Of a stretch of 64,000 nucleotides of DNA, positions 22,294 to 59,940 are shown piece by piece. Position numbers and translations under genes: made by a program. This stretch comes from Caenorhabditis remanei (lineage: Eukaryota; Nematoda; Chromadorea; Rhabditida; Rhabditidae): positions 18,848,001 through 18,912,000 of the forward strand of contig NC_071331.1 in assembly GCF_010183535.1 (NCBI RefSeq), given 5' to 3'. A model generated the notes under the pieces. That model had not been told where the DNA came from, ran no database searches, and worked only from the letters and a program-made list of their open reading frames with translations. The first letter of the stretch is position 1; every line of letters begins with the position of its first letter.

Positions 22294-24694
22294 TCATGTA
22301 TGGAAAACAGCACCTTGGGAAATCTGATAGAGTTCTTCATAGCGTTTCTGGCGCTCCTCGTATATCCTGGTGCAGTGTTGACACCACTCTTCTGTGTCTG
22401 TGAAGAAGCATGGAGGGGATCTGGTTATCGTGACGACTTGCTTTGTGACCTTGCAAATTGGACCGTCTTCCAGAGGGATGAGAGGTGCTGAGGATGTGGG
22501 ATGATCCACCATGTCTGAAACAGAATTATAGTTAGCTCAAGTAGACAAACTTGATATTTACCGGCAACTGGTTCGGAATGGCGTGAGCTGCCGTGAGCAG
22601 CAGGAAACTCTGGAAGTGGGCGATTGTTTGCGGGAGGATCTTCAGATTCCACGTCTTCTTCGCCGCCTCTAGCATTGTGAGCTGACGATGCTGGAGTTGG
22701 GTTCAAAAAAGCATCTGCCACGTCGTCAGTCCCATTTTCTTCATCATCACGCGAAGATTCTGAATTTCGTCCGTTAACAACTGGAGGCATAGACGCTAGA
22801 ACTCTAGTTGCTTACCATTATTAACTGATTCCAGATTGTCCTCTTCGTTCACAACTGAAATTCTATAATTGTCAGGAGAGCGGCGCTCTGAATCTGCTAC
22901 GTTGGAATCTGAAACAGAAATAGGATTACTATGTCATAGTCAGAGAAATTTCGTCTCTCTCAGCATACATACACGCCGAATCTACGCCAAAATTTCTCTT
23001 TGCAGAAAAAAAAAAGAGACGCTTTTGATTACCAGTGTCATGAGTGGAAGACGATTTCGAAGCTTCCATGTTTCCTTTATTTGAACTTGACGGTGCCGCA
23101 AAATCAACAACATCTTCCTCGTCCTCCAGCGGGGATTCTGAATCCTTCTGGTTAGGAGCTGTGAATCTCGACGAGACCGTTGAAGGTAAGGTAGGAGATG
23201 CATGGTCCAATTCGTCTTGGATAGAGTCATCTGAAATTGAAATGAAATTGTCTTAAGAAAAATAAGAGTTGTTGGATTACCTGTTCTATTTTGAATCGGT
23301 TCCTGACCTTCCACGTCTGGTATAAATTGCTCCTCGCTTTCAACAGAAGACTCATTATTTCTTTCCTCAATGATTGGAGACTGTGACGTCGATTGAGAAG
23401 CATTTATGTTTGACGTGAGTTGTTCTGAAGAAGAAGCTGCTTCATTTGAAGATCCTGACGACGTCGCTTCAGCAGAGCACATCTGTTTGAAGAGAGGTTC
23501 CGACATCCTGATATTTTCTACTGGAATTTCAGAGCTGTTTCCTTTTTGATTTGCTTCAAACCATTCCATTATCTGAAACAATGTTAATCAATTTATATAT
23601 ACTGTTTCAAGATTTCAAAGTCTCACCGAAGGCGCTGACACTTCCATTTTCTCTGATAGAAAACGGATATTGGCCAATATTATACGAGAGCCTTTGTACA
23701 ACTTAGGAAATTCGGTGTGTATATAATCAAGAATATTCACATTTCTATAGTTTACATTTTCTCTTATGTATTCATTGAACAACACTTTCACCAGATGATT
23801 CCTGCTGGGGCATTTTGGCTGAAACAATAGTTTTTAAGCTCATGTTTTAGAAAATTCAAGCATACCAGTTGAAAGGGTTTTGGATTTTCTAGCGATTCTT
23901 CGTCTAAAATTGCTTCATTGATAACTTGTTCCAGGAATTTATCTTTTGTTACTCCATCAATCGGTTCGGGAATTTCTATGTGGGCGTATATCTGTGAATC
24001 TCGTTTCTCGGTGAACCAGTTTTTGATCTGAAATTATATTTTGACATATTTTTTCTGAAGAAAAAATCATTAACCTCTTCCTCAGTGAGTCCAATGTTTT
24101 TCGCCAAGTTTCTTAAGCTAGCATCATATAAATATGGTCCATTTTTCGAAAACAGAAGATTATAATAAAGGAATTTCAGAGTTTTATCGGCATTTGAGTT
24201 GATTTCTTCTGGTTTTTGAAGTCGTGATCTTTTTGGTGCCGGTTCGGAAGGACCTTCTTCCAATGAATCTTTGGGGATTGCTCTCGGTTTCTGAATTTGT
24301 ATTTTTAAATTAATGTTTCAAAAATAAAAACTTACGTTGCGTTCGAATTCTATCTCTTCAATACATTCGATAGCATATTCGATGCAATCCGTTACTGTAT
24401 TGTTTAATTCATCGGAGGCTTCTTTGGGAGTAAATATAAGTTTCCATCTGTCATCATGCTTCCATCTATCAGAATTGCGTGTTTTCTCAAACCAATTTCT
24501 AATCTGAAAACAAAAAGTTTTTAGAACTTTTATTAAAATTAAACGGATTCACTTACATAGTCCACCGATTTATTTATTTTATTCGCTAATCGTGTTAAAC
24601 TGGCTTCGTATAAATATGGACCAGTAGGTCTTTCCCGAAGAAGGGCATAAATGACTTGTAATAACACATCAGCCGTTTGATCATCGAAAACCAT
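22294..24694 (-). CDS. Triple homeodomain-like (HOCHOB-type) protein with C-terminal four-Cys module, 632 aa
   Basis: Ten exons, 24694-24557, 24503-24336, 24290-24075, 24027-23866, 23818-23627, 23572-23281, 23230-23033, 22908-22816, 22780-22562 and 22514-22294, join in frame. Three divergent homeodomain-like repeats occupy residues 1-60, about 130-190 and 229-300. Each has GPYLYEASLTRLA or a similar helix and a recognition-helix-like WF (NWFEKTR at 50, NWFTEKR at 178, EWFEANQ at 296). In all three a phase-0 intron falls just before the WF helix. Residues 300-555 are acidic and Ser-rich. The C-terminus has a four-Cys module: Cys580, PPC595, Cys604, Cys607, then a basic-acidic helix. A nuclear DNA-binding role is inferred. 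It resembles the nematode HOCHOB/ceh-91-type group; this is recall, not a search. Confidence 0.82.
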
Positions 24695-24996
24695 TTTTGA
24701 TGTGAAATCTGAAAATAAAAGATTTATTGAAAATTATTATTGAAATTAAAAAAAAAAACTAAATTAAAAATGAAATGAGAACTTTTTAATATCGAAAACT
24801 GAACAAATTCCCCGATACCAAATAAACAACCAAACGGAGTCTCATCGTCGGTCACTCTCTCCCTTCCGCATGCTCTCTCGTCTCCTTTTTCTTTTCCACC
24901 TCTCCATCTGTTTCGGACCTCCCCCCTTCTCGATGGCAATCTCTCTCGCCGTCTCTCGTCTTCCTATGATCTCTCGTCTTATTTTCGTAAATGAGA
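24695..24996. promoter_or_regulatory. Conserved upstream region of the 22-kb HOCHOB gene
   Basis: The pyrimidine-rich block with CTCATCGTCGGTCACTCTCTC and ATGCTCTCTCGTCTCC recurs at the same distance upstream of the 25.9-29.6 kb paralogue. Retention of order and spacing suggests a shared promoter or a recent duplication. Confidence 0.55.
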
Positions 24997-25009
24997 TTTG
25001 CGCGCGAAA
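24997..25009. promoter_or_regulatory. E2F-like palindrome TTTGCGCGCGAAA
   Basis: TTTGCGCGCGAAA is a near-perfect palindrome containing GCGCGAAA, the core bound by E2F/DP. It lies 303 bp upstream of the ATG at 24694. The same motif occurs 300 bp upstream of the neighbouring paralogue (29947-29959). Function is inferred only. Confidence 0.45.
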
Positions 25010-25334
25010 TTTGAAAAATAAAGGTTTTGTTGTTTCCAGAGATTGAAGAATTTTTATTCAAAAAAGTTATTGGAAAAGGTTGAAACAGTACTTTTTTGAG
25101 GATAATATCATAAATATTATTTCTGATGTTTTATAAATTTTCGAGATGAACGAAAATTCCGTTTCAGGTGGTTTCTAGACGAATATTGAACCCAAAACAC
25201 ATGAAACCAATAAGTTTAAATGAAAATGGTAACAAAAACCTAGGAACTGAAACTTTTTGAGAAAACTGAAAACCCCGAATCCAAAATTTTCTGAGAAATG
25301 ACAGGAATGGTTATATTTTTGTTAACGATTGCTT
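25010..25334. other. Intergenic, nothing recognised
   Basis: No gene or clear repeat beyond sequence shared with the upstream region of the 29.6-kb gene. Confidence 0.4.
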
Positions 25335-25452
25335 TCTACAAACCTCTTCTTTCGCAAGAAAAATTTCAAAGATCGTTGCGTAATTCGGTCGATCCGTATA
25401 CCCAACACCGTTGAGAATATCAAGAATAATCGGTTTGAATGAGCTGTAGAAT
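25335..25452 (-). pseudogene. Fragment of a CK1-like kinase exon
   Basis: From 25452 downward the sequence is closely related to kinase exon 5 at 18646: ATTCTACAGCTCATTCAA, then ATATTCTCAACGG, GATCGACCG and TCTTGCGAAA. It is preceded by the same TTTCAG-type acceptor (GTGTTTTCAG). Small differences (an extra codon near its start, then early loss of homology) and the lack of other kinase exons mark it as a dead fragment. A 99-base open stretch rich in Lys lies just upstream (25560-25462). Confidence 0.75.
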
Positions 25453-25908
25453 CTGAAAACACCTGGTGTGAAATCTTTTTTCCTTTTGAATCATCTTGAG
25501 TAAAAATGACTGGCTTTTTTCCTAGTTTTTCTTCTGCTTTATATTTTTTAACCATTTTTATCTGCAGAAGAAGTCACAATACAAAAAATTTATATGAGCA
25601 AGTGTATGGAATTGAAGAAAATGTACATAAATCACAATTTTAATTCGTTAATATGTAAGAAAAACGGCAGGAGGGAAAGGGTTGAGAAGAAATGAATCGG
25701 GGGAGAGAAGGAATGAAACATGAAAATATGGTTTTCATCAGAACAAAAAAGGTGTTATTAGGAATCAACATACTTAATTTATTTGAATTAGTTTGAAAGA
25801 CTTTAAAAAGTCCCTCACAAGACAATTTCGAGTGAAAAATGAGGAGGGCAAGAAAGATAGAAAAAGAGAGGGAATGTAGAAACGATAGAACGTAGGGTAA
25901 TGGGTCTT
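25453..25908. other. 3' flank of the 29.6-kb gene
   Basis: No supported gene besides the kinase fragment. The strand and position make it the likely 3' UTR and downstream region of the minus-strand HOCHOB gene. Confidence 0.4.
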
Positions 25909-28900
25909 CTAGAACTTGAACTTTGAAATAATCTGATACAGTTCTTCATGGCGTTTCTGGCGCTCCTCGTATATCCTGGCGCAGTGTTGACACCACTCTT
26001 CTGTGTCTGTGAAGAAGCATGGCGGGGATCTGGTTATCGTGACGACTTGCTTTGTGACCTTGCAAACTGGACTGTCTTCCAGAGGGACGAGAGGTGCTGG
26101 GGAGGTGGAATAATCCACATTGTCTGAAACAGAATTATAGTTAGCTCAAGTAGACAAACTTGATATTTACCGTCTAGTCCCCAATTTCTGACGTAGTCAG
26201 TAGGCTCGGGTTCTTCAACAAAGTGGTCATCTTCCTTTCCATTTTCTGAAATAAATATTGGATTGTTGCAAAAAAATATGTGGTTAGATTACCAGAAACT
26301 GATCCTGTTGCTGGAAGTGGACTATTGTTTGCTGGTGGCTCTTTAGATTCAACGTCTTCATCGTCATCGAACGCATCGTGGGCTGACGATGCTGGTTCAG
26401 AAATTGATTGTGGAGAACCAGAAGAGGATGACGTCGGAGGCGCAGAACATGATTCTGGAGCTCTCGGATCGATGCTGACCAAAGAATCTGAACCAGAAGT
26501 ACAATTATCTAGACAAAGCAGTTCCTTCCCATTACGAACTGATTCCTGGTTGTCCTCTTCGTCTGTATCTGATATGAGCTCATTAATTCCAGGTCCTTCA
26601 CCCTCGACGTCATTCCTCGATTCTTCGTCATCAGACTCCTCCTCGTCCTCAACTGAAGCTCCATTGTCTACTCCGTCGGAATCTGAAACAAGCATCAGAC
26701 TACGATCTCATAGTCAGAGAAATGTTTGGTGCTCCTGGCATTCACTCCCAACTTACTCCAATATTTCTCATTGCAGAAAAAAATACGAGACGGTGTTCGA
26801 TTACCAGTGTCATGAGTGGAAAACGACTTTGAAGTTTCCACAAAATCAACAACATCTTCCTCGTCTTCAAAAGGGGATTCTGAATCCTTCTGGATAGGAG
26901 CTGTGAATCCAGACATGGATAGGGATGTTTCTGAAGACTCGAGAGCTGCCTCGTCTTCAACTGGAGACTCAACATCCGGAAATTGTAATTGTGAAGATCT
27001 CTCGTTGGCAGAGATTCGCTCACGAGGATCAGATTCATTAGCTGGTGATTTCGGAGGTGTATCGTTATCAGATGGCCCTTCTTCTTCCATAGTTGTTCTA
27101 TGCTTGTCGCTTTCTGAAGACGCTACTCTAGCCATCGTGCTATTCTCTGGAACAGAAATGTGATTAATTGATAGAAACGGAATTGTTTTAAATTACCGAA
27201 GTGGTGAACTCCTGTTGTTGGAATGGTCTCGTGATCAAAAGCAGCCACTCTTCCATCGTCATTTGGAACAAGTTCTGAACCTGCGATCAATTTATACATC
27301 TTCATTACAGCAGCGGCAGTAGTTGAAATTGGTTTTTTATTTGAACTAGTTGAGATCACTCCACCATTGGAACTCCCCGCGAAAGAAGAAGAAGCTGCTT
27401 CAACAGAGCGCATTTGTTTGAAGATAGCTTCCGACATTCTGATATTTTCGACTGGTATTTCCGAGGTGATCCTTTTTTGATTTGCTTCAAACCATTCCAT
27501 TATCTGAAACAATAGAAATTAATTTATATACTATTTCAAAATTTCAAAGTCTCACCGAAGGCGCCGACACTTCCATTTTCTCTGATAGAAAACGTATGGC
27601 CCCCAAACTTATACGGGTACCTTTGAACAGCTCAGGTAATTTGGTGTGTATATAATCGAGAATATACACTCTTCTGGTGTTATAATTCTCACTTCCATAT
27701 ATTAAACAAGCGGATTCGAACATCACTTCAAAATGAAAAGTACTGCTGGAGGTTTTTGGCTGAAACAGTAATTTTTAAGCTCAAGTTTTTAAAAATTTAA
27801 GCATACCAGTTGAAAGGGTTTCGGATGTTCTATCGATTCTTCGTCCAAAATTGCTTCCGCGATAATTTGTTCCAGCAATTCATCTTTTGTTACTCCATCA
27901 ATCGGTTCGGGAATTTCCAGGAGGGAGCATTTCTGTGAATCTCGTTTTTCCATGAACCATTTTTTGATCTGAAATCATATTTTGACATATTTTTCTGAAG
28001 AAAAAAGACTAACCTCTTCCTCAGTGAGTCCAATTTTCTTAGCCAAGTTTTTTAAGCAAGCATCATATAAATATGGACCATTTTCCGAACACAGAAGATT
28101 ATAATAAATGAATTTCAGAGTTTTCTCCGCGTTTAAGTGGATTTTTTCTGGTTTTTCAAGCCGTGGTCTTTTTGGTTCCGGCTCGGAAATTTTGGTTCTT
28201 CTCGTTGGAATGGTCTCGCGATCAAGGACAGCCATTCTTCCATCGGGATTCGGAACAAGTTCTGGAGCTGCTATCATTTCATAGTTCTTCTCAGAAGCGG
28301 CAGTAGTTGATATTGGTCTTCTAGTTGAACTAGTTGAGATCACTCCACCATTGGAACTCCCAGCAAAAGAAGAAGAAGCTGCTCCAGTTGAAGATCCTGA
28401 CGGCGTCGCTTCAGCAGAGCGCATTTGTTTGAAGATAGCTTCCGACATCCTGATATTTTCTACTGGTATTTCCGTGGTGATCCTTTTTTGATTTGCTTCA
28501 AACCATTCCATTAACTGAAACGATGGTCCTCAATTTAAATACTATTTCAAGATTTAAAAGTCTCACCGAAGGCGCCGACACTTCCATTTTCTCTGATAGA
28601 AAACGGATATCGGTCAAACTTAAGGGGGTACATTTTGATAGATTAGGCAATGTGGTGTGTATATGATTGAGAATCTTCACATTTCTGGTGTCCTCTTTAT
28701 CTCTTCTATATAGTAAACGAGCTATTTTAAACATCCCTTCCACCTGTACATCACTGCTGTGTATGTTTGGCTGAAACAATTCTTATATTCATGCTTAAAA
28801 AAATTTAAGCATACCAGTTGAAAGGGTTTTGGATTTTCAATCAATTCTTCGTCCAAAATTGCTTCATTGATAATTTGTTCCAGGAATTCATCTTTTGATA

Positions 28901-29647
28901 CTCCATCAATCGCTTCGGGAATTTCTATGTGGGCGTATTTCTGTGCATATCGTTTCTCAGTGAACCAGTTTTTGATCTGAAATTATATTTTGACATCTTT
29001 TTTCTGAAGAAAAAACTAACCTCTTCCTCAGTGAGTCCAATTTTCTTAGCCAAGTTTTTTAAGCAAGCATCATATAAATATGGTCCATTTTCCGAACACA
29101 GAAGATTATAATAAATGAATTTCAGAGTTTTCTCCGCGTTTAAGTTGATTTTTTCCGGTTTTTCAAGCCGTGGTCTTTTTTGTTTTGGCTCAAAAGGTCC
29201 TTCTTCCGATGCCACTTGGATGTTGGTTTGTTTTGGGCATTTGGGGATTGTTCTCGATTTCTGAATTTGTATTTTTAAATAAATTTCTCAAAATATAAAA
29301 ACATACTTTGTATTTTAAAACTTTCTTTTCAAACGTTTCGATAACAAATTGGATGTGTCTCGTTACTATTGTGCTTAATTTATCTGAGTATTCTATCGGA
29401 CGAACTTCATGTTTCCTTGGATCAGACTCGCGTCTTGCTTCAAACCAATTTCTAATCTGAAAACAATAAATTTTTAGAACTTTTATTAAAATTAAACGGA
29501 TTCTCTTACATAGTCCACCGATTTATTTGTTTTTGTCGCTAATCGTGTTAAACTGGCTTCGTATAAATACGGGCCAGTAGGTTTTTTCAGAAGAACGTCA
29601 TAAACTAATTGTAATAAGTACTCAGCTTTTCTATCCTCCATATTCAT
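25909..29647 (-). CDS. Five-repeat homeodomain-like (HOCHOB-type) protein with C-terminal four-Cys module, 1029 aa
   Basis: Thirteen exons, 29647-29510, 29456-29307, 29260-29021, 28976-28815, 28770-28567, 28514-28014, 27968-27807, 27759-27556, 27503-27197, 27146-26805, 26682-26293, 26245-26171 and 26123-25909, join in frame. Five homeodomain-like repeats have their WF motifs at residues 50, 180, 302, 469 and 591. Repeats 4 and 5 are an internal tandem copy of repeats 2 and 3, with the whole exon set duplicated; exon 6 (28514-28014) is a fusion of two ancestral exons. A long acidic, Ser-rich middle follows, then the four-Cys module (Cys979, PPC994, Cys1003, Cys1006), nearly identical to that of the 22.3-kb gene. 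A 48-bp in-frame stretch within 26682-26293 has splice-like ends and may be an optional intron. Probably nuclear. Confidence 0.8.
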
Positions 29648-29946
29648 TCTGATATGAAATCTGAAAATAAAAGATTTATTTAAAAGTGTCATTGAAATTT
29701 AAAAAAAAAAAAACAAAATTAAAACTGAAATGATAACTTTTTAATCTGGAAAACTGATTAAATTCCGACTCCAAGGTAACCAAGTGGTGTCTCATCGTCG
29801 GTCACTCTCTCCGTTTCTCATGCTCTCTCGTCTCCTTTTTCTTTTCCACCTCTCCATCTGTTTCAAACCTCCCCCTTTCTCGATAGCAATCTCCCTCGCC
29901 GTCTCTCGTCTTCCTATGGTCTCTCGTCTCATTATCGTAAATGAGA
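29648..29946. promoter_or_regulatory. Conserved upstream region of the 29.6-kb HOCHOB gene
   Basis: It matches 24695-24996 in order and spacing, including CTCATCGTCGGTCACTCTCTC and CGCCGTCTCTCGTCTTCCTA, so the two genes were duplicated with their promoters. Confidence 0.55.
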
Positions 29947-29959
29947 TTTGCGCGCGAAA
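29947..29959. promoter_or_regulatory. E2F-like palindrome TTTGCGCGCGAAA
   Basis: Identical to the site at 24997-25009 and 300 bp upstream of the ATG at 29647, inside ATGAGATTTGCGCGCGAAAT. Binding by an E2F/DP complex is inferred from the motif only. Confidence 0.45.
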
Positions 29960-30297
29960 TTTGAATAATAATAGTATTGTTTCCTATAGAGATTGGAGCA
30001 TTTTGTACCAAATTTTGAAACTAACACACATAAAACCAATAGTTTTAAAGAAAAACGGGAACATAAACCTAGGAACTGAAAGCTTCATAAAAAACTGAAA
30101 ACTTATATCAAAAATTTTGACAAAAATCCTCTATTTTTCGTTAACCGTTGATACAGAGAAAAGTACTAGAAATGACAATGTGGTAAATAACGGGGGAGAA
30201 AATGGAATGAGTTCAGAAATTAAATGACACTTGAAAATTGAGATGGGGGTAAAGCAGATTGTACAGTATTTTTTGAACATCAGAATAAACATTCTCT

Positions 30298-32269
30298 TCA
30301 CTCAGACGGCATCACTTTTGACGACGGTCCAGCCACACCATCCTGATGAGTTCGTTTCTTTCCGGAGGGACGCATCAGAATCTGTTCAAGTTCGTGGTAA
30401 AGTTGTTGACGTCTATCGAAGATTATTTGACAACTCTCACAGAGAACATTGGTTGATTTTTCCATTAGACAAGGTGGGGTTCTATCCAATTGGACATATC
30501 TTCGAATGAGTGTACAGAAAAGTTTTGGAGGAAGTGGAGGAGCTGGGGTGGGAATTGCTTCGTTGGAAGATTCTGGAGCTGAGTGAGCGGCTACATCCTC
30601 AATTATTGGTTCTGTAGCGTTCACGGGACCAGAAGATGTTTCTGGAAGGGGAACATCTTTTGGAGTCGCCACGTTTTCTGTAGATTTAGCTGGAGGATTG
30701 CTTTCAGATGATTCTTCCGGAGCTTCAATTTCTTCTTTGATTTCTTTAATCGGGTCAACTTGGTGTGCTTCCTTTTCAGATGGCATTACTTGAGTAGTGG
30801 ATGTGGAGGCATCGCATGGCTGAAAAACAGAAAATAATTGCTGTTTTTACAAAGAAATATACATGCTTGCGAAACGGGCCGGCACGTAACTCGCTTAAAA
30901 CTCAATATTATGAGTTGAAAAATATACCAAAATGTGGATCTCGGCGAGCTCTATATCCGTGACCTACTGCGGGTCGGGCTAGAATGGCTTTTTTGGTCAT
31001 TTTTGCGTTTTTTGGCCATTTTTCTCGGCCCATAGAACTCGTCGAGATCTACATGTTTGTATTTTTTTCAACTCATAATATTAAGTTTTAAGCGATTTAC
31101 GCTTGGGCCCGTGTTGGCCCTATTTGCAAGTAGGGAAATATCGAAGAGACTCACTTGCTGAGAAACACTCTTCTTCCTATCCATCAATGCAATAGCCTCC
31201 TCTATAATTTTCGAAACGAAACTGCCACTCGTCGCACCGGGAACCTCTTCGGGAACGGGAACACCTTGCTTCTTTTCTATATTTCTTTTTGCGGAGAACC
31301 AGTCGTGTATCTGATGATTGGATAGTCCGATTCTCTGTCCTAGCAGTTCAAGGTCTGCGTCATAGAGGTACGGACCGTTTGGAGTGTCCGATAGTTGTTT
31401 GTAGATATGTTCCAGAGCAAGTTTGTTATAGTTTTGATCCACTTCCGTTCCTGATTTGATCTGAAATTATTTTTTTATATTTGAAGATTCATAGTTTTAG
31501 ACTAAAAAGCTTAAAATCTCAAACTAGTTTTGAGGAGTTTTCTAAATTTTATGAGCATTCTTTTTTTCTCTGACAGACCAAAATCGGAGCTAGCAGACCA
31601 AAATCTGAGCTAGAAGACCAAAATGGAACTAGCAGACCAAAATAAGAGGGAATTTTTTCAATTTTTCAGCAAAAGTTTGAACATTTTTGATGATTTTTCA
31701 AAATTTCTTCGAATTCTGAATGAAACTAAAGTAGCAGACCAAAATCGGAGCTAGCAGACCAAAATTAGAGCAATTTTTTTAAAATGTGCACATTATTTGA
31801 TGATTGTTCAGAATTTCTTCAAATTCTGAATGATAGTCCAAAATGTGACTTTTTCATGATAAAAAATGCGAACATTTTTGAATTTTAAACTTTGGCGCCA
31901 AGTACCCGTACCAGCCTCAACAAGTATGAATTTTCTCATCCCTCTAGATAAAAAAAGACATACCACTTTGTCTATTTCCTGATTTATAACTATCGTTACA
32001 AAATTATCAGGTTCGGTTCCCGAATCAACTTTTCCAGGTACAGGTCCCTTTGAATTCCGTTGTTCCCACCGTGTTCTTCGGAACCAACGTCGAATCTGAA
32101 ACGGTAAATGAAAAATATTTACAGAAAAGAAACCAATTACCTCAATCTCTGATTGTTTCGTGATTTGTGACAATCTCGTCAGACTCGCATCATATAAATA
32201 TGGACCGACTGAGGAGTCATAGAGACTTTTGTAAATTTCCTCTAACAGTTTATTGGCGTTCTCTTCCAT
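30298..32269 (-). CDS. Double homeodomain-like (HOCHOB-type) protein with four-Cys module, 362 aa
   Basis: Exons 32269-32141, 32095-31964, 31460-31155 and 30819-30298 join in frame. Repeat 1 spans residues 1-55 with GPYLYDASLTRL and RRWFRRTRWEQR (WF at 47). Repeat 2 lies in exon 3 with GPYLYDADLELLGQRIGL and HDWFSAKRN (WF at 141). The intron that splits the recognition helix elsewhere is kept in repeat 1 but absent in repeat 2. A Pro/Glu/Ser-rich linker leads to the four-Cys module: Cys291, TPPC306, Cys316, Cys319. Cys319 is followed by an amphipathic helix like those of its neighbours, and the protein ends in a short Lys-containing tail. It is the most divergent member of the three-gene tandem cluster. 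Its upstream region lacks the E2F-like palindrome. Intron 3 carries a hAT-like MITE and intron 2 a tandem repeat. Confidence 0.82.
30862..31134. mobile_element. hAT-like foldback MITE in intron 3 of the 30.3-kb gene
   Basis: Ends CATGCTTGCGAAACGGGCC and GGGCCC...TTGCAAGTAG are inverted relatives. Longer arms include ACTCAATATTATGAGTTG, CTCGGCGAGCTC and TCAACTCATAATATTAAG. Flanks GAAATATA and GAAATATC are near-identical 8-mers, as expected for hAT-type target duplication. Confidence 0.68.
31575..31770. repeat. AGCAGACCAAAATCGGAGCT tandem repeats
   Basis: Five to six imperfect units of about 20 bp (GCAGACCAAAATCGGAGCTA and variants) lie in two groups, 31575-31645 and 31732-31768. They sit inside intron 31461-31963 of the HOCHOB gene, separated by an AT-rich spacer. 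Confidence 0.75.
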
Positions 32270-36946: not shown

Positions 36947-38195
36947 TTAGGGTGTTTCATAAGTCTTTGCACTTTTTCTATCAGTTTTTCATCAAATTTT
37001 TCTTAATGAGAAAGGAGTTCTAATAAGTTATATGCTGTCCATGAGTACTGATAACATCTTGCCAACATTATGGTAGTTGGGCTATTCCGGCCGCGTAGAA
37101 CTCTGGCGGCTGTGAGCTCAAGAAGTGATCAAGGTAAGATTTCACTTGCATTCGATCCTCAAATTTTTGACCAGCAAACGAGTTTTGCCATGATTTAAAA
37201 AGATGATATTCAGTTGGAGGAAGGTCTGAAAAATACGGCGGGTAAAGTAGAACTTCAACTCCCTGAGCCTGTAAGAAGTTGCGACTCTTGGTAGCAGAGT
37301 GTGAGCGAGCATTGTAATGCAACAAAACTAAATGATCGATTTCCGGCCGTAATGAGCGATGGGATTGGATCATTTTTTGGAGTAGTTGACAGTATAAGTT
37401 GACTGTTATTGTAGCACGATCCGGAAGAAGTTCGTAACAAATGACCCCGTTTCTGTCCCACCAAACTGAGAGCATCATTTTTTTCTCATGCATATCTCTT
37501 TTCTGGTCCGTCAACGGCTCGTCATTATCCAAAACTCCCTGCTTTTCACTGTCTGGTATACATAGAGACCCCATTTTTCATTTCCCGTAATAATATCGAG
37601 AATCCAATCGAAACTACGCTTCCAACTGAGCAAAGACTGCGACAGGTCGCAACTGAGCTTCATCTATGCATCAGTCAGTTCATGAGAAACAACTTGTCGG
37701 TATTTTGCTATTCTTCCAGATTCTTTTAGAAGTCTGAATATTGTTGCGGACGAAGGTCCAGTATGTGAAGATACTTCACGTACACTTGATCTATGCTCAT
37801 CCTCTAGGACATCAGAGATATCATCGTCGATATCTAAACGAGGCCGACCAGAATGGGACTTATCATCAAGATTGTAGTTTTCTTCTTTGAAGTTTTTGAA
37901 CCAAGTTGCTGCTGTTTTATAAGATATGATGTCCACACCAACGGTTTCGCTTATATTTCGATAAGTTTTCATTTCGCTCAATCCTGGGAGGTATCCCAAC
38001 AAAAAACACCTTTTTAGAGCATTGCGATCTTTGGCGAGTACTTCTGCCGTGGTACGCTGTTCTGGGGACTTGCAAAACAGAAATTTTTCTTGAGGGTAAC
38101 AGTACAAGTTAATAATAAAAAAAGGTCAAAAAAATGTCATGGGGTCACAGCGCAGTACGTTGAAAAAAAGTGTAAAGACTTATGAAACACCCTAA
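36947..38195 (-). mobile_element. Decayed mariner transposon
   Basis: A 1249-bp element with termini TTAGGGTGTTTCATAAGTCT and the exact inverse, flanked by TA (36945-36946 and 38196-38197). It is inserted in the last coding exon of a SUN-domain gene. The transposase on the minus strand is dead, but the terminal repeats are nearly perfect, so the element could still be mobilised in trans. Confidence 0.92.
37068..38107 (-). pseudogene. Mariner transposase remnant
   Basis: The N-terminal part (38107-37664) keeps a helix-turn-helix region with AATWFKNFKEENYNLDD and SGRPRLD. It ends in an in-frame TAG after SHELTDA. A frame change follows before the catalytic part (about 37620-37068). There the usual TGDEKW is TGNEKW, the HDNARPH site is HYNARSHSA and the third catalytic site reads PPTEYHLF. 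Two acidic catalytic residues are thus replaced. The element cannot encode active transposase. Confidence 0.9.
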
Positions 38196-43441: not shown

Positions 43442-43616
43442 TTTAATTGATATTGTCAGTCAGTATTCATTAGCTACCTAAAAGTACAACTTGAATGGCT
43501 CTAACAATTTCAAAGAATTGGCTCAGCTACCAAGGAATCGAGCAGAGAAAGTAGTATCTACTTCACCTGCTTTTTGCTGAGGGCCAAGGTAGTCTCACCA
43601 TTGAGTAAATAAAGAA

Positions 43617-43628
43617 GTATTTGCATAC
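43617..43628. promoter_or_regulatory. Octamer-containing block GTATTTGCATAC (SUN gene 2)
   Basis: 176 bp upstream of the ATG at 43441, on the same strand relation as in the other two copies. Confidence 0.5.
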
Positions 43629-44102: not shown

Positions 44103-44114
44103 GTATGCAAATAC
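44103..44114. promoter_or_regulatory. Octamer-containing block GTATGCAAATAC (SUN gene 3)
   Basis: 174 bp upstream of the ATG at 44288; inverse complement of the blocks upstream of SUN genes 1 and 2, as expected for the opposite gene orientation. Confidence 0.5.
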
Positions 44115-44287
44115 CCTTTATTTACAATGAGGAGACTCACATGGTCCCCTAGCAGTTGGAGTGGTCACTTCTTTCTCTGTTCCATTCCCTGGTAGGTGAG
44201 TAAATTCTTTGGCACTGTTATAGACATGTAAAATGCAAGTTGTACTTTTAGGTAGCCAATGAATACTGACTGACAATATCAATTAAA

Positions 44288-45666
44288 ATGGTTCAAGCAT
44301 CATTTGGAAAAGATATCGAGTCAGCAAATGGTTCAAAGGAATCTTCAAATACCAAACTTCAAAAAGGTGGATTTCAAATCGAAGAATCGACAACCAAAAA
44401 AGAAATATGGTAAGTCTGGAATCATTTTAAATTCGAAAAACAAAGAATATTCAGGTATGAATGGATCAGAAGTAGGCTTCGTTATTATATGATTCTGGAA
44501 TTGTTGTTTTCGATTTGTCTCGTGTTGATTCTATGGAAACTATGCTATATTTCATCTCAGATTTCAAGTATTCATTCCGAATTCCGAGATTTCAAACTAG
44601 ATATTGAATCTAATAGAGCTTCCAAACCAACGGACACTATTAATCTGGATGGAGGAAATAAGAAAATAGAAAAATTTGTAGAACAAGTGATAAAAGATAT
44701 CAAGAATCCATCGATTGAGAATAAACAGAAATCAAAAGAATATCCAAAACAAACTACCCCAACTAAAGATAATTCATCTTCGAATAACTCGGTATCCCAA
44801 ATAAATGCAGCAAGTCTTATTCTCGGAGCAAAAGTTGATTCAAGTCGATCATCCAATTCAGACAATAATCCATCAATCGGAAGAGATCAAAGTGGTTATG
44901 TATTGATTGATAGATCTGATCCACCATCAGATAAAGCATGGTGTTCGAATGAGAAGAATCCAATTTTGACTATTGATTTGGCAAAGTACGTCAGACCAAT
45001 TTCAGTGTCTTATCAACACTCGAAATGGTCTGGAATGGTTCCAGATGGTGCACCGAGAAGATATGATGTACTTGTGAGTTTATTCATTATCTCGAGAGTA
45101 TTCAATTCATTTTTATTCGTTCAGGCTTGCCTCGATTACTACTGTAACAATCTAGAACCTCTTGTCTCAAATTGTGAATATAGAGCAACTGGAGACAACA
45201 AACAAGAACAATTCTGCTCAATTCCATTCAATCGAAATCATTCTTCAATTGGAAAAGTTCAATTTCATTTCCGTCAAAATCATGGAAATGTCATTAAAAC
45301 TTGTGCTCATACGATTCGAGTCTACGGAGAGACGAAAGTTAAAGAGATGACTCGGAAACAGGCAACTTGTTCTGAACTCACTTATGACTACCATCATAAC
45401 CCGTGGATTTACAAAATAGTTTGTTTTCTGAATATTAAACCAGCAATAATTTATATTATTTTCAGTTGGACAACAAGAATTGCAAGGTACTTTACTCGAA
45501 TGACTGCTGTACTGAATGTCCGGAATGCTGCGATGAATGTGTTATTAAAGATATCAACTTTGACGTAATTTATTTTTACTCCGCACTTATAATCTTTTCT
45601 CCTTTTTTAATCGCTATTCTTTTTCTCAGTATTGCATTAACAATACAACATTATTTCAGCAAATGA
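44288..45666 (+). CDS. SUN-domain membrane protein 3, 411 aa
   Basis: Exons 44288-44409, 44455-45073, 45125-45418 and 45466-45666 join in frame. Very similar to SUN genes 1 and 2: membrane segment ELLFSICLVLILWKL, SUN-like domain with GYVLIDRSDPPSDKAWC and ILTIDLAKYVRPISV, and the Cys cluster CCTECPECCDEC. It has lost five codons after the VYGETK motif and has a shorter hydrophobic C-terminus ending HYFSK. Like gene 2 it lacks the short extra exon segment of gene 1. Its 5' flank is closest to that of gene 1, so genes 1 and 3 look like an inverted pair flanking gene 2. The role is inferred from the SUN domain: linking membrane to KASH-type partners at the nuclear envelope. Confidence 0.85.
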
Positions 45667-45841
45667 AAGTAATCTAATTAAGTTTTGAAGAGTAATAACT
45701 CAGAAAAACGAATATTGTTAGAGACGAATATGTATTGAATTGAAATTGGCACATTGGATGAAAGTTTATTTTGTAAGCAAAATAAAACTACTTTAGGATT
45801 GAATCATTGATAATTCAGATTTAAATCCAAATATATTATGG

Positions 45842-46060
45842 AGACTGCTGTACTGAATTCCGGGAATGTTGTAATGAATGTCTTATTAAAGACACCAACT
45901 TTGAGACAATTCTTTTCTGCGTCGGATTAATAATCGTTGTTTCTATTCTATTCCTTCTGGGCGTTATCCTTCCTATCTTAGTTTCAGTATCTTTTTAATC
46001 TTGACTATCACTATCGGTATAGATTTGATAGAAGTTTTAAAACAGAAAATAAATAGTTTT
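45842..46060 (+). pseudogene. Last-exon fragment of a fourth SUN gene
   Basis: GACTGCTGTACTGAATTCCG and ATGAATGTCTTATTAAAGAC match the Cys-cluster exon of the SUN genes. The rest follows the gene 2 tail (ATTCTATTCCTTCTGGGCGT, AGTTTTAAAACAGAAAATAA) to near CAAACGAAAAAAATC. Cys codons are lost (ECPECC became EFRECC) and a stop interrupts it. No upstream exons are present. Confidence 0.8.
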
Positions 46061-46299: not shown

Positions 46300-46353
46300 C
46301 AGGTCACTACTTCTCACGAGAAATCTTGGGAATAAGCCTTCTTTTCTTTTTTT

Positions 46354-48012
46354 CTATTATCGAAACAAAAAAGTTCCGACATTTTTTTCCGACGCACGAG
46401 AAATGCGCCTTGAGCTTTTGGCAACGCCCACTTTTGCAACATGCGGCGCGCGCTTTTCGCAAGGTGTGGGCGCACAAGGTTGGTTTGCTGTCGACAGACT
46501 ATTTTTTAATGATTTTATTCGCAAAAACTCTATTTTTCCATCAAATTTCTTTATTTTTTCAATGAAATGTTACTTAAAAACGCTGTATTGACAAGGTTTG
46601 AATGTGATTTATACAATTTTATCTGTTTTTGTGTTGAAATCGTTTGATTTTCGCCGTTTCCTTTTCCGTTCTGTTTTTTTCCCATTTATTGCATGATTTT
46701 TGTTTTATTTCAGATTCAAAAAGGCCCACATCCATTCTCCGAACAATCGAGTCTCAAGGATTCTTAGTTTTTGTGTTAGTTTGTCTCGAAACTTTTGTTT
46801 TCTCTCCGCCCAGTTTTAGTTTCAGAACCGCCGATTCATTCGAATAACCATCGGGCACTCTTGGAAACTCTTAGTCAACGACAGTCCTCAAAAACGAAAG
46901 ATAAGGGATTTTAGTCGTGTTAGTTGAAGAAGAAACTATTGTTTTTCTCTCCGCCAATAATTTACAGGTCCACGTGGCGAATCGACAGAGAAGACAATCT
47001 GAACAGGAAAGAGGAAATGATTTCAGTATGAAAGGAGATGAAAGCGAAAAGGAAAACGAGAAGAATGAAGGGAGGATAGGAGGAAAGAATATGGAAAGTA
47101 AAGGTGGAGAACAGAAAGACACAAAGAAGAGATGAAGGACAAAACACTTCCTTTGTAAATGTAAAATATCCGCTTAAAGATTCAAATATATTTGTGCGAA
47201 ATGACAATAAATGTTGTTCTCTTTTCATTTAAATTGTTAAACAATTGGGTGGCTGGAAGATGACGTTTCAGATGCAGAAGACATCAGCGATGATGAGATT
47301 CTGAATGGAGTTCTCGAGGAACGTGACGGTTCTGCTGGCTATGAGCTCTTCGATTAGAATTCTTGTTTTTTCATTTCACTGTCGATTCGCCACGTGGACC
47401 TGTAAATTATTGGCGGAGAGAAAAACAATAGTTTCTTCTTCAACTAACACGACTAAAATCCCTTATCTTTCGTTTTTGAGGACTGTCGTTGACTAAGAGT
47501 TTCCAAGAGTGCCCGATGGTTATTCGAATGAATCGGCGGTTCTGAAACTAAAACTGGGCGGAGAGAAAACAAAAGTTTCGAGACAAACTAACACAAAAAC
47601 TAAGAATCCTTGAGACTCGATTGTTCGGAGAATGGATGTGGGCCTTTTTGAATCTGAAATAAAACAAAAATCATGCAATAAATGGGAAAAAACAGAACGG
47701 AAAAGGAAACGGCGAAAATCAAACGATTTCAACACAAAAACAGATAAAATTGTATAAATCACATTCAAACCTTGTCAATACAGCGTTTTTAAGTAACATT
47801 TCATTGAAAAAATAAAGAAATTTGATGGAAAAATAGAGTTTTTGCGAATAAAATCATTAAAAAATAGTCTGTCGACAGCAAACCAACCTTGTGCGCCCAC
47901 ACCTTGCGAAAAGCGCGCGCCGCATGTTGCAAAAGTGGGCGTTGCCAAAAGCTCAAGGCGCATTTCTCGTGCGTCGGAAAAAAATGTCGGAACTTTTTTG
48001 TTTCGATAATAG
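46354..48012. repeat. Long palindrome: 635-bp arms, nearly identical
   Basis: Left arm 46354-46988 and right arm 47379-48012 are inverse complements with one length difference and otherwise no mismatch that I can see. Example blocks: CTTTTGGCAACGCCCAC, GTGGGCGCACAAGGTTGG, TTCTCCGAACAATCGAG, CCACGTGGCGAATCGACAG. The 390-bp spacer holds two plus-strand coding-like tails. The arms contain GCGCGC-rich sequence related to 50.9-51.1 kb. Near identity implies recent origin or gene conversion. Confidence 0.9.
46989..47378 (+). other. Palindrome spacer with two coding-like 3' ends
   Basis: One frame ends at TGA 47133-47135 with a Lys/Glu-rich tail (SEKENEKNEGRIGGKN), followed by AATAAA near 47208. 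A second ends at TAG near 47356-47358 with acidic DAEDISDDEILNGVLEERDG. Each could be the last exon of a gene or a relic of an element's own gene. Neither has a confirmed 5' part, so they are not called as CDS. Confidence 0.35.
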
Positions 48013-48120
48013 TAACGGGGATTGCGGTAAACCAACGGTCTGATCACTAATGTTAAGTTCTTGCATATCGAGAGAGAGATAGTGTTTCAGTGGAGGGTGG
48101 GGACGAGTCTTCTGAAGTTG

Positions 48121-49046: not shown

Positions 49047-50025
49047 TTATTTAGTGCCCTCAAGTCTCTTGCTTCTCCGTTTCATATCCTTTGGAGCTTC
49101 CTCATCGCCTTCGCACGGGTTTTCTCGTCTTCTAGATGTATTACTCGAGGATTTCGAAGACGTCGATGGCATGGGTTCATCACTTGGACGTTGACTGTAA
49201 CTTGGTTCATCGAGTGGTATTGAACCGGTACCAGGTCTCGAGAAGTCTGATCCGTTGTCCGAGGTGCGACTAGATTCTCCTGAACCAGGCCTCGAACCGA
49301 ACTTGGACGAAGCTGGACTGACATTACCAGATCTCATTTCTCTTCTTTGAAAACTTTCTAGGGCTGCTGAACCACGTCTTTCTGAATTGGGATTTTGACG
49401 AACTGCCTCGTCATCTACTTCCTCTTCTTCATCAGAATTTCTGTTTCTGTTGACGATGTTGGATTCCGGGGGTTCGTCATTCGATGAAGTTAATGCCATC
49501 TGAAATCATACCAACTCAATTAAATTCCTTAATTAAAATACAAACAATCACCTCAGTGGAAGATTCTGGAACGGCATGAGAAGTGGAAGTGGATGGAGCG
49601 TTGTTTGAGCTTCTGCGTCTATTTCTCCTGACTTCTGAGTCTTCTGTTGCTTCATGTGGTGTCTGAAATGAGAATTCCATGATTTTGGTATTTTCTGAGA
49701 CCGCTTGACGAAAAGAGGAATTCTAGAATTGGAATTCAACCAATGGTCCGCAAAAGTGCGTCACGGTGTCGGTGGTGGTTGCAGACTGCGTACCGTAGTC
49801 GCGAAAGAATTAACTTATTGCCGGCAACTATTTTGAGAAATTGTCGCGAAAAGGTACAGAATTCCTCGGTAAACAAAATTTAACAAAATTAATTGACTCT
49901 ACTCGACAAATCCCACTTTTCCGCCGCTCGAGACTCACCATTTCTTCATTGTTTCCGTCTGGAACCTCGTTCTGACCCGTCTCTTGCTTCTTATTTCCAG
50001 TGCGACCCGATGTTCTGCGTGTCAT
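49047..50025 (-). CDS. Disordered Ser-rich protein, 216 aa (paralogue of 57.7-kb gene)
   Basis: Exons 50025-49939, 49662-49552 and 49499-49047 join in frame. The first exon encodes a basic start (MTRRTSGRTGNKKQ), the second has RRNRRRSSNN and a Ser/Thr tract, and the third is acidic (NSDEEEEVDDEA) then Ser/Gly-rich (FGSRPGSGESSRTSDNGSDF). It ends in a basic stretch (DMKRRSKRLEGTK). No folded domain is visible. It is about 90% identical by eye to the first three exons of the gene at 57684 but ends before the four-Cys exons, so it is either a truncated duplicate or a shorter family form. Nuclear location is plausible from the basic clusters, but function is unknown. Confidence 0.75.
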
Positions 50026-50386
50026 GGTTATTGAGACTGAAATATGCAAGTTCTAACACAAATAATGAGAAAAACTGGCAAAAAGCAGAGAGACAAAGGG
50101 AACGTGGTAAAAAAATGACAAAATCAGTAAAGAAATTACAAGATTCGCGGTTTCGCGGATCAATTTCATAAATATCATTGGTGATCTTCCACACAACAAA
50201 TTAACAAATAAAAAGTTTTAAAATAAAAATTTTGTGGGTGTGAATAATATTTATTCCGAAATATTGAATGGAGAGACATTTTTGAATGTTATGATATGAA
50301 TAGGTTATGGTATAAGTGGTTAAATTCGAGTACAAATAAATAAAAAGAAAGAAAGATACATGAGAAAATTACAAGGTATTATTAGA

Positions 50387-52277: not shown

Positions 52278-52278
<1 letters not shown>

Positions 52279-53777: not shown

Positions 53778-53794
53778 ATTATCTTTTATTTATA

Positions 53795-56099: not shown

Positions 56100-57420
56100 C
56101 CCAAATTCCTTATAGTTTCCTCACGTCGCACTAAAGATCCATCTACGATATAGTCGAATATTTTTGGTTTGGCACCCAGCGATATCTAGGAAGTTGTATC
56201 TTTATTGAGAGCTAGCCGATGATCTTTGGACCATTTATTGATAAATTCGATGGCTCCAGGGAGAGGGCTAGCGACGGCGTCTTCTGGCAGAATCGAATAC
56301 AGTTTCAGATCATCCACAAATTGCTTACAGCGAACGTAAAGCACTCGGAATAGTGTTCACAAATAGACCAAACAGAACTGGCGAGATTACGGAGCCCTGT
56401 AGAACACCAAAGACTGCTGTTCTATCGCTAGAGAACGAAGAAACCACTTTTCAAAAATGCACTTATCCACGAGACTAAATTATTTTTATCTTCAGCTCTT
56501 GGAGTTTATCGAGCAGTTGGCAGTGGGGCACGCGATCGAAAGCTTTGGCGAAATCAAAAATCTACTTGGCATCCCTTGTCCATTCATTCATTGATTCCAA
56601 CATACAGGTTGTTGTAGATTTCCTAGGCAGAAAGCATCTTTCGAACATTCTACATATGTTAGATGTGATGCTAATGGGTCTGAAATCGGTGAGAGCTTTT
56701 GGTTTGCTGACTTTATTTAGCGGATTTGGGCTATTTGACTACATATTAGAGGAGCGATAAGCTTTACAATCTTGAAGGGGACTTCGTCGGGTGTTAGAGA
56801 GCAGGAGTTTTTTGCTTTGGAAGTCATAAATAGTGTTTCATAGTCACTGACCCACGGGATTTCTTGTTTCGGTGGTTAATTAGAGCTCAAGGAGAATGAT
56901 TTCAACGCAATGTTAGTGTATTGCAGTTCAAAATTGAGCGCTAAGGCTTCCGCTTTTTCATAATCAGTAGTTGCAGGCAATCCATCCGGATGGGTAAGGT
57001 TGGGAACGATAACAGTTTTTGGCTTTAGTAATGCTTTTGCGTGGTGGGAAAACCTGTTGCTCCCTTTTGATTCCAAATTCTTGAATTCGGCGTTTTTCGT
57101 GAATTTAAGGAGCTTTTTCCGAAACTTCCTAGCAGCTTCGACGTAGTCAAGAAAGCACCCGGCGGTTCTGGTTTTTATGTTTTTTTTTGGTAGAGGTTCT
57201 CGGCGTAGGATTTATATGATCTCAGATAGTTGGGTAGGTTAAAAAAAAATGGCACCAGTCAACCTCCTTCAAGTATTTAGTTTTGCAGGTATCCCAATCA
57301 ATTTTATTAAAACCCCAAAAGCATGATATCTCCGATTCAGTTTTGCTTAGAATATCGAAACATAATACTATTTTATTGTGGTCACTTGACCCGATTGGAG
57401 CTTGTGTTTTAGTGTGTTTG
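56100..57420 (-). pseudogene. Degraded non-LTR retrotransposon (endonuclease end and RT)
   Basis: On the minus strand, fragments appear in the expected order: the endonuclease end GSSDHNKIVLCFDIL (near 57380), linker with KNLESKGSNRFSHHAK-type sequence, FDFAKAFDRVPHCQLLDKLQ (near 56540), GVLQGSVISPVLFGLFVNTI (near 56390) and FVDDLKLYSILPEDA (near 56310). Several stops and at least one frameshift break it. It differs from the intact CR1-like LINE at 9.2 kb and is clearly old. Confidence 0.85.
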
Positions 57421-57683
57421 ATGGCAAAGTTGGTAAATGTAATGGCTAAAGTATTCAGTTTTCTTGTCGGTGGTTAAAATGGTGCTGGAAGTTTTGCACT
57501 TTACAGAAATTTATGAGAAAATACCACAGTTTTCTTTCGGTATCTTGGTTTGGTCTATTACCGTCCACTCCAGAAATTTTTAATTTAATTCATCTTTGAC
57601 GTTCCCTCACTATTTTTATCCATTTTTTCTCAGAAATTGAGTTAGAATTTTCATATTTCAGTCTCCGCCGCGTCTGTGTGACC

Positions 57684-59940
57684 ATGACACGGAGAACATC
57701 GAGTCGCACTGGAAATAAGAAGCAAGAGACGGGTCAGAACGAGGTTCCAGACGGAAACGATGAAGAAATGGTGAGTTTCCTCTTTTGCAGGGCAGCAGAA
57801 TTGGCCGAGTAGAATCTATCAATTTTGTGAACACTCTCAAAAACTTCCGCTAAAACAAAAAAACATGCATAACATCGTGGCATGCCAAAGCTTACTGTGT
57901 GACGACTTTATTTTCAAGAAAAATTGAAAATTGACTCCATATACTAAAGAATCTTGTAAATTTGTGTGTAATAGAATTCAAACTAGATAAAAAACTTCAA
58001 TTCTGAAATGCTTTCCTTCCAGAAATATAATTGTTTATTTTAAACTTTCTTCAGACAGAAAGAATAGTATAAGCTTACAAAGTGAAACAAATCTACTAGC
58101 GGCTTTTTAGGCTAGTCGAGCGTTGCAAAGCTCACAGACAATTGTAATGTCGACAATCACCTTATCCATCTTTTGTACTACATTTCAATTATTTAAATAA
58201 CGAAGAATCTCGTCATATTTCGCGACAATTTCTCGAAATAGTTGCGGCCCATTGGTTGAATTAGAATTTTAGAATTTCTCTTTTTGTTTCTAAAGACTAC
58301 TCTTCCTTCTTCACCAGCGCGCTCAGAAAATACGAAAATTACGGAATTCTCATTTCAGACACCACGTGGAGCAACAGACGACCCAGAAGTCAGGAGAAAT
58401 AGACGCAGAAGTTCAAACAACGCTCCATCCACTTCCACTTCTCATGCCGTTCCAGAATCTTCCACTGAGGTGATTGTTTGTATGTTAAGGAATTTAATTG
58501 AGTTGGTATGATTTCAGATGGCATTAACTTCATCGAATGACGAACCCCCGGCATCCAACATCGTCAACAGAAACATAAATTCTGATGAAGAAGAGGAAGT
58601 AGATGACGAGGCAGTTCCTCAAAATCCCAACGAAAAAAGTGGTTCAGCAGCCCTAGAAAGTTTTCAAAGAAGAGAGATGAAATCTGGTAATGTCAGTCCA
58701 GCTTCGTCCAAGTTCGGTTCGAGGCCTGGTTCAGGAGAATCTAGTCGCACCTCGGACAACGGATCAGACTTCTCGAGACCTGGTATCGGTTCAACACCAC
58801 TCAATGGACCAAGTTACAGTCAACGTCCAAGTGGTGAACCCATGCCATCGACGTCAGATCTGGAAATCGTTGAAAGGAAACAGACTGAACACAAGGAACG
58901 AGAAACGACGCACGATGAGGTTTCAGAAGGAGACGATGAAGAATATGTATGTTTTTATGTCGGAAATTTTAGATTTTCTTCGGGGAAAAATGGAATGGGG
59001 AGCAGAAAGCCATTATGAAGAAGACAATTTCCAAAACTAGCATTATTTTTCAGACAGCGACACCTTCAGACCCCACTTTGATATGCGAATTCGTTGGACG
59101 GTTTCTTCAAACCGCAAGAATTCCGCCGTGTTTCAAAAATGAATCAAGTGTTATCTGCTCTACCTGTCTTGATTATTTCGAGTGTTACTGGGTACCTATT
59201 CTTTCATACGGGTCAGCGAGGAGATCTCGCAGATTGAATGAACTCAAACGACCACAAGGTTATCTTCTACGGAATATTGGAATTCGACCCCTTGGCGCCT
59301 ACATTTCCGCCTCACAAGATTCGATAATATGTGACTGGACTGGGAGAAGTCTACGATTCGTTCGAAATCCACCATGTGTTCAGGGGAACCCCATCAATAT
59401 CTGCAATACATGTCGGAAGACTTTCAAAATGAAGTGGAGGCCTCCAAACAAAATCTATCAAATCGGTGTAGCTGTCCGCAAAAGTGGAGTAGTTCCAAGG
59501 TCAAGGGGCTCTGTCATGGTTGCCAAATCCAAATCTCATGCAACTCCGAAAGTCCCACTCATCTGTGAATACTCTGGTATTCATCTTCAACCCAATCAGT
59601 GGCCACCCTGTAATTTCGACTGTTCTGTTCAGACGTTATGTTCTGTTTGTCTGAAATTCCTACAAGAAAATTATGAATTCTTAAAAGCTAAAGGGTGGCC
59701 AAAAAAAGGATTTCGGAAGTTGGTAGGGATTTTCTAAAATTTTCTTTGGGTTCCAAACTTTTTCTGTTTCAGAAGAGATCGCCAACAAAACAAGATCCAA
59801 AGCGAGTTCCAGGACCAGACAGAGTTTTGAGTCCGTCCCCGTCCGAGTTAGCACCGGGGCCCAGCCAGCCAACGCAGCCGCAAATGAATCGTCCAGCACC
59901 AAAAAGACGGAGAGACGTGGATTCAGAAGAGAGCGAATGA
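57684..59940 (+). CDS. Disordered protein with three four-Cys modules, 487 aa
   Basis: Exons 57684-57770, 58359-58469, 58518-58946, 59054-59722 and 59773-59940 join in frame. Residues 1-209 are disordered: basic start, Arg-rich RRNRRRSSNN, acidic NSDEEEEVDDEA, Ser/Gly tract. Exon 4 encodes three repeats of one module with Cys at 220/235/244/247, 302/317/326/329 and 380/395/405/408. Each has Pro-Pro before the second Cys (ARIPPC, VRNPPC, NQWPPC) and a basic aromatic helix after the fourth. The tail is Pro/Lys/Arg-rich (NRPAPKRRRDVDSEESE) and looks like a nuclear localisation signal. The same module ends the HOCHOB proteins at 22-32 kb. Zinc binding and nucleic-acid contact are inferred. Its duplicate at 49.0-50.0 kb lacks exons 4 and 5. 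Confidence 0.8.

What the first reader, a model, noticed from the sequence alone, without database searches (positions are those of the whole stretch)
22294..59940. Shared four-cysteine module links homeodomain-array genes and a distant three-repeat gene
The C-termini of the three genes at 22.3-32.3 kb and three repeats in the 57.7-kb gene share C-x12-PPC-x8/9-C-x2-C, followed by an amphipathic helix: six copies in four genes. In every copy the first and second Cys are separated by exactly 14 residues, the last two being Pro-Pro. Spacing conserved against otherwise unrelated sequence points to a folded, probably zinc-binding domain. I know no named domain with this spacing; GATA fingers, LIM and RING differ.
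Basis: partly seen in the sequence, partly recalled or inferred. Interest (0 to 1): 0.9.

Follow-up and report, generated by a model that had tools for sequence, protein, structure and literature searches.

The report
Four-cysteine module in worm homeobox genes
Four neighbouring genes of the roundworm Caenorhabditis remanei, three of them carrying homeodomain arrays, share a small four-cysteine building block that looks like an undescribed zinc-binding domain, although metal binding is inferred here and not shown.

Summary
C-x12-PPC-x8/9-C-x2-C occurs six times in six frames of the window, in four genes, and in none of 200 shuffles. The genome is Caenorhabditis remanei: two of the four proteins equal deposited ones. 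The copies are homologous, not just alike in spacing: with Cys and Pro fixed, 5 of 20,000 permutations reach the observed similarity. Seven protein searches of the whole genome returned these six copies, one apparently intact copy on contig C6 in a gene without a homeodomain anchor in the 9.9 kb read, one decayed copy and two unrelated weak hits.

Corrections: copies A and B are recent duplicates; the following helix is not detectably amphipathic, and Pro or Gly interrupts it in the repeats; zinc is inferred. No named family appeared in Pfam, PDB or the protein database, but the AlphaFold models are weak (pLDDT 60-62), other nematode genomes could not be searched, and the "UCM" motif of C. elegans CEH-86 could not be compared. 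Best reading: a zinc-stabilised mini-domain, carried on one exon, in fast-evolving, probably nuclear proteins.

The parts
22294..24694 (-). Gene A: 10 exons, 632 aa, three homeodomains by WF anchor, acidic stretch, C-terminal four-Cys module
   Evidence: Exon assembly with GT..AG introns and no internal stop; WF anchors; not itself scanned against Pfam apart from its last exon
22294..22514 (-). Gene A last exon, which carries the module (Cys core 22372-22455: C-x12-PPC-x8-C-x2-C)
25909..29647 (-). Gene B: 13 exons, 1029 aa, five homeodomains by WF anchor, acidic stretch, C-terminal four-Cys module
   Evidence: Pfam Homeodomain E=2.6e-14; WF anchors
25909..26123 (-). Gene B last exon, which carries the module (Cys core 25981-26064: C-x12-PPC-x8-C-x2-C)
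30298..32269 (-). Gene C: 4 exons, 362 aa, two homeodomains, C-terminal four-Cys module; equals GCK72_015190
   Evidence: Exons read by eye; 100% match
30298..30819 (-). Gene C last exon, which carries the module (Cys core 30430-30516: C-x12-PPC-x9-C-x2-C)
57684..59940 (+). Three-repeat gene: 5 exons, 487 aa, no Pfam match at E<=10; equals GCK72_015196
59054..59722 (+). Exon 4 of the three-repeat gene, holding all three modules
59084..59167 (+). Module repeat 1 (x8 loop)
59330..59413 (+). Module repeat 2 (x8 loop)
59564..59650 (+). Module repeat 3 (x9 loop)
49047..50040 (-). Inverted partial duplicate of exons 1-3 of the three-repeat gene, without the module exon
   Evidence: Exon frames; arms of 92-96% over the exons; no motif match there

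Best explanation
The four genes share one homologous mini-domain of about 40-50 residues. Over the seven intact copies its consensus is [I/V/F]-C-x2-[T/S/V/I]-[G/K/R]-x2-[V/L]-x3-[R/Q]-x-P-P-C-x8/9-C-x2-C followed by a helix. Most likely the four cysteines hold one zinc ion: the first Cys sits in a short beta-hairpin, the second after the Pro-Pro loop, and the C-x2-C pair in the first turns of a helix, a layout loosely like treble-clef fingers. The module is carried on a single exon. It sits at the C-terminus of homeodomain-array proteins, as three copies in an acidic protein without homeodomains, and as one copy in a further such gene on contig C6. It probably works as a binding surface (for protein or nucleic acid) in fast-evolving nuclear regulators. 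Shown: the motif, the gene models, homology, modular distribution. Inferred: zinc, fold, nuclear role, binding function.
For: Six of six window copies and the C6 copy keep all four Cys, both Pro and the 14-residue gap. Profile comparison of the three homeodomain-gene modules with the three repeats: probability 94.6, P=6.7e-8, 50 columns, partly driven by the shared Cys and Pro. With those positions held fixed, 5 of 20,000 block permutations reach the observed similarity (68 of 20,000 for the part between first and last Cys). Queries against the whole genome cross between the two groups: gene C module to repeat 1 E=0.003, C6 exon to repeat 2 E=0.002, repeat 1 to gene C E=0.008, gene C exon to repeat 1 E=0.008. 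The module is gained or lost as an exon: the 49-kb duplicate has exons 1-3 and no module, and the C6 gene has an acidic part plus module with no homeodomain anchor in the 9.9 kb read (exons read by eye). Both AlphaFold runs give hairpin, loop, helix, with C-x2-C starting 4-5 residues into the helix. A second deposited C. remanei protein (P0002, CRE_16275, 91% identical to gene C) keeps the Cys core unchanged. Four invariant Cys with a C-x2-C pair in proteins with homeodomains fits zinc better than disulphides (established knowledge).
Against: No metal evidence at all. Model confidence is low and Foldseek finds no fold. dN/dS of the module exon among the close copies A, B and C6 is 0.5-1.4 on 66 codons, so no strong purifying selection is visible. 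Of the 12 homeodomain-gene-to-repeat pairs, 8 are weak on their own (k from 38 to 552 of 4000) and 4 stand out (k of 0, 1, 16 and 17). Of six single-exon or single-module genome queries, repeat 2 crossed only to the C6 copy (E=0.05) and repeat 3 returned only itself and repeat 1; the gene A exon reached repeat 2 only at E=0.8. The C3 copy has lost most of the Cys, so the module is not always kept.
Confidence: 0.66

Rival explanations
1. The module is a divergent member of a described cysteine motif of Caenorhabditis homeobox-related proteins, namely the UCM upstream of the homeodomain of C. elegans CEH-86 and in the C35E7 open reading frames.
For: UCM is described as a conserved-cysteine region, possibly metal-binding, linked to a divergent homeobox gene and to genes without a homeodomain in several Caenorhabditis species (passages read). 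The pattern of distribution is like the one here.
Against: UCM lies N-terminal to the homeodomain and is said to suggest multiple fingers; here the module is C-terminal and compact.
Confidence: 0.15
2. The module is a far-diverged member of a named zinc-finger or treble-clef family that sequence profiles no longer recognise.
For: C-x2-C near a helix start after a hairpin is typical of such folds (recalled). The best PDB profile hits are C2H2 fingers of CTCF at E of about 0.02, matching only the C-x2-C part.
Against: No Pfam family at E<=1 for the four module-bearing exons; no best-scoring PDB stretch reaches the first Cys; no Foldseek match at E<=0.001, on a weak model.
Confidence: 0.25
3. The cysteines do not bind zinc; they form disulphides or serve as redox or Fe-S ligands.
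For: No direct metal evidence; C-x14-C is unusual for classical fingers (recalled).
Against: The array proteins carry homeodomains, so are probably intracellular and nuclear; a C-x2-C pair is typical of zinc sites (recalled).
Confidence: 0.1
4. The shared spacing between the homeodomain-gene modules and the three repeats arose by convergence, not common descent.
For: The repeats are only 18-25% identical to the gene C copy, and 8 of 12 cross pairs are weak on their own.
Against: Permutation with Cys and Pro fixed (5 of 20,000), cross-group genome hits at E 0.002-0.008, all within 38 kb of one contig, and Pro-Pro in 6 of 6.
Confidence: 0.08

Closest known systems
HOCHOB domain (CEH-91, CEH-92, CEH-93; Hench et al. 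2015, PMC4448998)
   Same: Divergent multi-homeodomain proteins of Caenorhabditis combined with conserved cysteines proposed to bind metal; reported from Caenorhabditis only (passages).
   Different: HOCHOB has two invariant Cys in a linker of about 17 residues between two homeodomains. Here the stretches between WF-anchored homeodomains hold 0-2 Cys with no common pair, and the four Cys form a separate C-terminal module.
UCM, uncharacterized cysteine motif of CEH-86 and C35E7 genes (Hench et al. 2015)
   Same: Cysteine motif joined to a homeobox gene and also found without one (passages).
   Different: N-terminal to the homeodomain, described as possibly several fingers; sequences not available here, so spacing not compared.
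CEH-99 and CEH-100 multi-homeodomain genes
   Same: Arrays of divergent homeodomains without obvious orthologues in other Caenorhabditis.
   Different: The passages read mention no four-Cys module; their sequences were not compared.
Treble-clef and GATA-type zinc fingers
   Same: Hairpin followed by a helix with C-x2-C near its start (weak models).
   Different: First half is C-x14-C with Pro-Pro, not C-x2-C (recalled); no profile or fold match.

Membership tests
HOCHOB | Two homeodomains separated by a linker of about 17 residues | tested here: inconclusive
   7 of 7 gaps between WF-anchored homeodomains are 35-108 residues. The anchor assumes a fixed length, so loop insertions shorten some gaps, and it would miss a first HOCHOB homeodomain, which is described as lacking the WF motif
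HOCHOB | Two invariant Cys in that linker | tested here: not met
   The 7 gaps hold 2, 1, 1, 0, 0, 1 and 0 Cys; the one pair (gene A, first gap) is absent from the matching gap of gene B
UCM | Conserved cysteine pattern shown in S4 Fig of Hench et al. 2015 | not testable with these tools
Homeodomain proteins | Match to the Pfam homeodomain profile | tested here: met
   Gene B 53.2 bits, E=2.6e-14, cut-off 22.9. Gene C 22.7 bits, just below the cut-off (Homez 21.6 against 21 passes). Gene A homeodomain exons were not scanned
Homeodomain proteins | Asn at position 51, the DNA-contacting residue (recalled) | tested here: not met
   0 of 10 WF-anchored homeodomains have Asn three residues after W
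Any Pfam zinc-finger family | Profile match over the four Cys | tested here: not met
   0 families at E<=1 for the four module-bearing exons; 0 at E<=10 for the three-repeat protein
Zinc-binding domain in general | Four Cys converge on one metal ion | tested here: inconclusive
   Models of pLDDT 62.1 and 59.9; coordinates not available for distances

The most novel reading that the evidence does not exclude
A previously undescribed zinc-binding mini-domain, restricted to C. remanei or a small group of Caenorhabditis, spreads as a single exon between homeodomain arrays and acidic proteins without homeodomains, and takes over as the working surface in proteins whose homeodomains have all lost the key DNA-contacting Asn51.
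Probability: 0.3. Interest if true: 0.62.

Novelty: new variant of a known kind. Interest (0 to 1): 0.45.

Why it matters
Caenorhabditis genomes hold fast-evolving homeobox genes with no clear relatives in other species. A small domain found both with and without homeodomain arrays, carried on one exon, and recent enough that partial and decayed copies survive, would let one watch how a new domain is born and combined. If it binds zinc, C-x14-C with Pro-Pro would be an unusual finger layout.

Tried and rejected
HOCHOB was the first idea; it is rejected on one tested feature, the Cys pair, while the linker length is inconclusive. A hit on C6:14625346 (E=0.21) lies in a frame without the motif that overlaps a much longer frame of another gene. 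A hit on C4:6779913 (E=0.02) has two stops, and no motif was seen in its frames. PDB profile hits to CTCF fingers cover only the C-x2-C half. Five paper searches (HOCHOB; uncharacterized cysteine motif; ceh-100/ceh-99; the gene names GCK72_015190, GCK72_015196, CRE_16275; multiple homeodomains with zinc) listed no paper on this module. Seen of papers: PMC4448998 passages, outline and section 14 part 1 of 2; PMC4901127 passages; the others as listings only. The protein search with the 254-aa frame found nothing, probably because the annotated 487-aa protein lies outside the length limit. Relatives in other Caenorhabditis: the two full-length searches found only C. remanei proteins (two and one), but candidates must share short exact words, so absence elsewhere is not shown. 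dN/dS on 66 codons is uninformative.
Full report
What is there. The window lies in a 130-Mb genome of 186 contigs. Two of its proteins equal deposited C. remanei proteins: gene C (362 aa) is GCK72_015190, named only as homeobox domain-containing, and the three-repeat protein (487 aa) is GCK72_015196, named uncharacterized. Contig sizes fit assembly PX506, with C4 as chromosome IV and C6 as X (recalled, not looked up). The stated pattern C-x12-PPC-x8/9-C-x2-C was found six times in six frames: one copy each at the C-termini of genes A, B and C on the minus strand, and three in one exon of the plus-strand gene at 57684-59940. In 200 block shuffles the full pattern appeared 0 times, the pattern without Pro-Pro 5 times and C-x12-PPC alone 13 times.

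Gene models. Gene A has 10 exons and 632 aa, gene B 13 exons and 1029 aa, gene C 4 exons and 362 aa, the three-repeat gene 5 exons and 487 aa. Genes A, B and C hold three, five and two homeodomains by the WF anchor. Pfam supports gene B strongly (E=2.6e-14) and gene C at 22.7 bits, just under the 22.9-bit cut-off; the homeodomain exons of gene A were not scanned. In each gene the module lies in one exon: the last one in genes A, B and C, exon 4 of 5 in the three-repeat gene.

Is it one family? Copies A and B are recent duplicates at 93% nucleotide identity over 66 codons, so there are about five lines in the window. The repeats are 18-25% identical to the gene C copy, yet profile comparison of the two groups gives probability 94.6 and P=6.7e-8. 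To remove the effect of the fixed pattern I held the four Cys and two Pro in place and permuted the other columns of the repeat block against the homeodomain-gene block, the C6 copy included: 5 of 20,000 permutations reached the observed score, and 68 of 20,000 for the part between first and last Cys. One residue of the longer loop was dropped in the two copies with nine residues to bring all to one length. Pair by pair the signal is uneven: of 12 pairs four stand out, gene C with repeat 1 (0 of 4000), C6 with repeat 2 (1), B with repeat 2 (16) and C6 with repeat 3 (17); the other eight range from 38 to 552 of 4000.

Census in the genome. Seven protein queries with module-bearing sequences were run, six at E<=10 and one at E<=0.01, besides the first 254-aa query that found only itself at E<=0.001. 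Together they returned: the six window copies; one apparently intact further copy on C6:1328012-1328242 (minus); a decayed copy on C3:15157086-15157267, which in its best frame keeps only the Pro-Pro-Cys; and two unrelated weak hits, C4:6779913 with stops and C6:14625346 in a frame without the motif. Repeat 2 returned repeat 1 and the C6 copy besides itself; repeat 3 returned only repeat 1. The tool scores only its best candidates, so this is a lower bound.

Modularity. The C6 copy follows an acidic stretch whose exons can be read with GT..AG introns from an ATG (sequence, read by eye); no homeodomain anchor was found by regular expression in the 9.9 kb read. In the window, an inverted partial duplicate of the three-repeat gene at about 49.0-50.0 kb keeps exons 1-3 on arms of 92-96% identity but lacks the module exon. 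So the module is gained or lost as a unit. Which happened here is not decided.

Fold and mechanism. Two AlphaFold runs with different lead sequences both gave a hairpin, a loop and a helix that begins 4-5 residues before the third Cys, at low confidence (pLDDT 62.1 and 59.9; pTM 0.38 and 0.37). The amphipathic helix is not supported: in 13 of 14 tests at least 451 of 2000 shuffles had as large a hydrophobic moment (the exception, repeat 2 over 18 residues, 81 of 2000), and the first Pro or Gly after the last Cys falls at residue 10, 10 and 15 in the repeats. Zinc binding is my inference from four invariant Cys, the C-x2-C pair near a helix start, and the homeodomain context.

Comparison. Hench et al. 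2015 (PMC4448998; passages and section 14 part 1 of 2 seen) describe HOCHOB and UCM in divergent Caenorhabditis homeobox proteins. HOCHOB's invariant linker Cys pair is not met: seven gaps hold 2, 1, 1, 0, 0, 1 and 0 Cys. The linker length is inconclusive, because a first HOCHOB homeodomain lacks the WF motif on which my anchor rests. UCM remains open, because its figure is not held. No Pfam, PDB or protein-database match names the module, and five paper searches listed no description. None of this shows absence in other nematodes: the protein search needs shared words, and this genome has no relatives in the genome tool.

Side result. In 10 of 10 homeodomains the residue three after the helix-3 Trp is not Asn (A, E, K or R instead), and in 3 of 10, the WFEANQ type, the Arg two further on is Gln. 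Classical homeodomains use Asn51 for DNA contact (recalled), so these arrays may bind DNA differently or not at all, which makes the C-terminal module a more likely working part (inference).

Noticed in passing
22294-32269 (genes A, B, C): None of the ten WF-anchored homeodomains has Asn at position 51, and three of ten also lack Arg53 (WFEANQ type).
   Followed up: partly
49047-50040 (-) and 57672-58855 (+): Inverted partial gene duplicate: exons 1-3 of the three-repeat gene without its cysteine exon.
   Followed up: partly
38230-45979: Inverted and direct copies (mostly 81-95% alike) of a gene family with a SUN-like domain (name recalled by eye, not searched).
   Followed up: no
46351-48015: Nearly perfect inverted repeat (99-100% over about 650 bases) around a 382-base spacer.
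   Followed up: no
9177-12227 and 56186-57473: A long LINE-like reverse transcriptase frame of 1016 aa, and a LINE-like remnant just upstream of the three-repeat gene (both by eye).
   Followed up: no
37068-38125: Mariner-like transposase pieces (by eye).
   Followed up: no
L019:3980-5020 (-): Repeated AT-hook-like KRGRGRP segments upstream of the C6 module gene.
   Followed up: no
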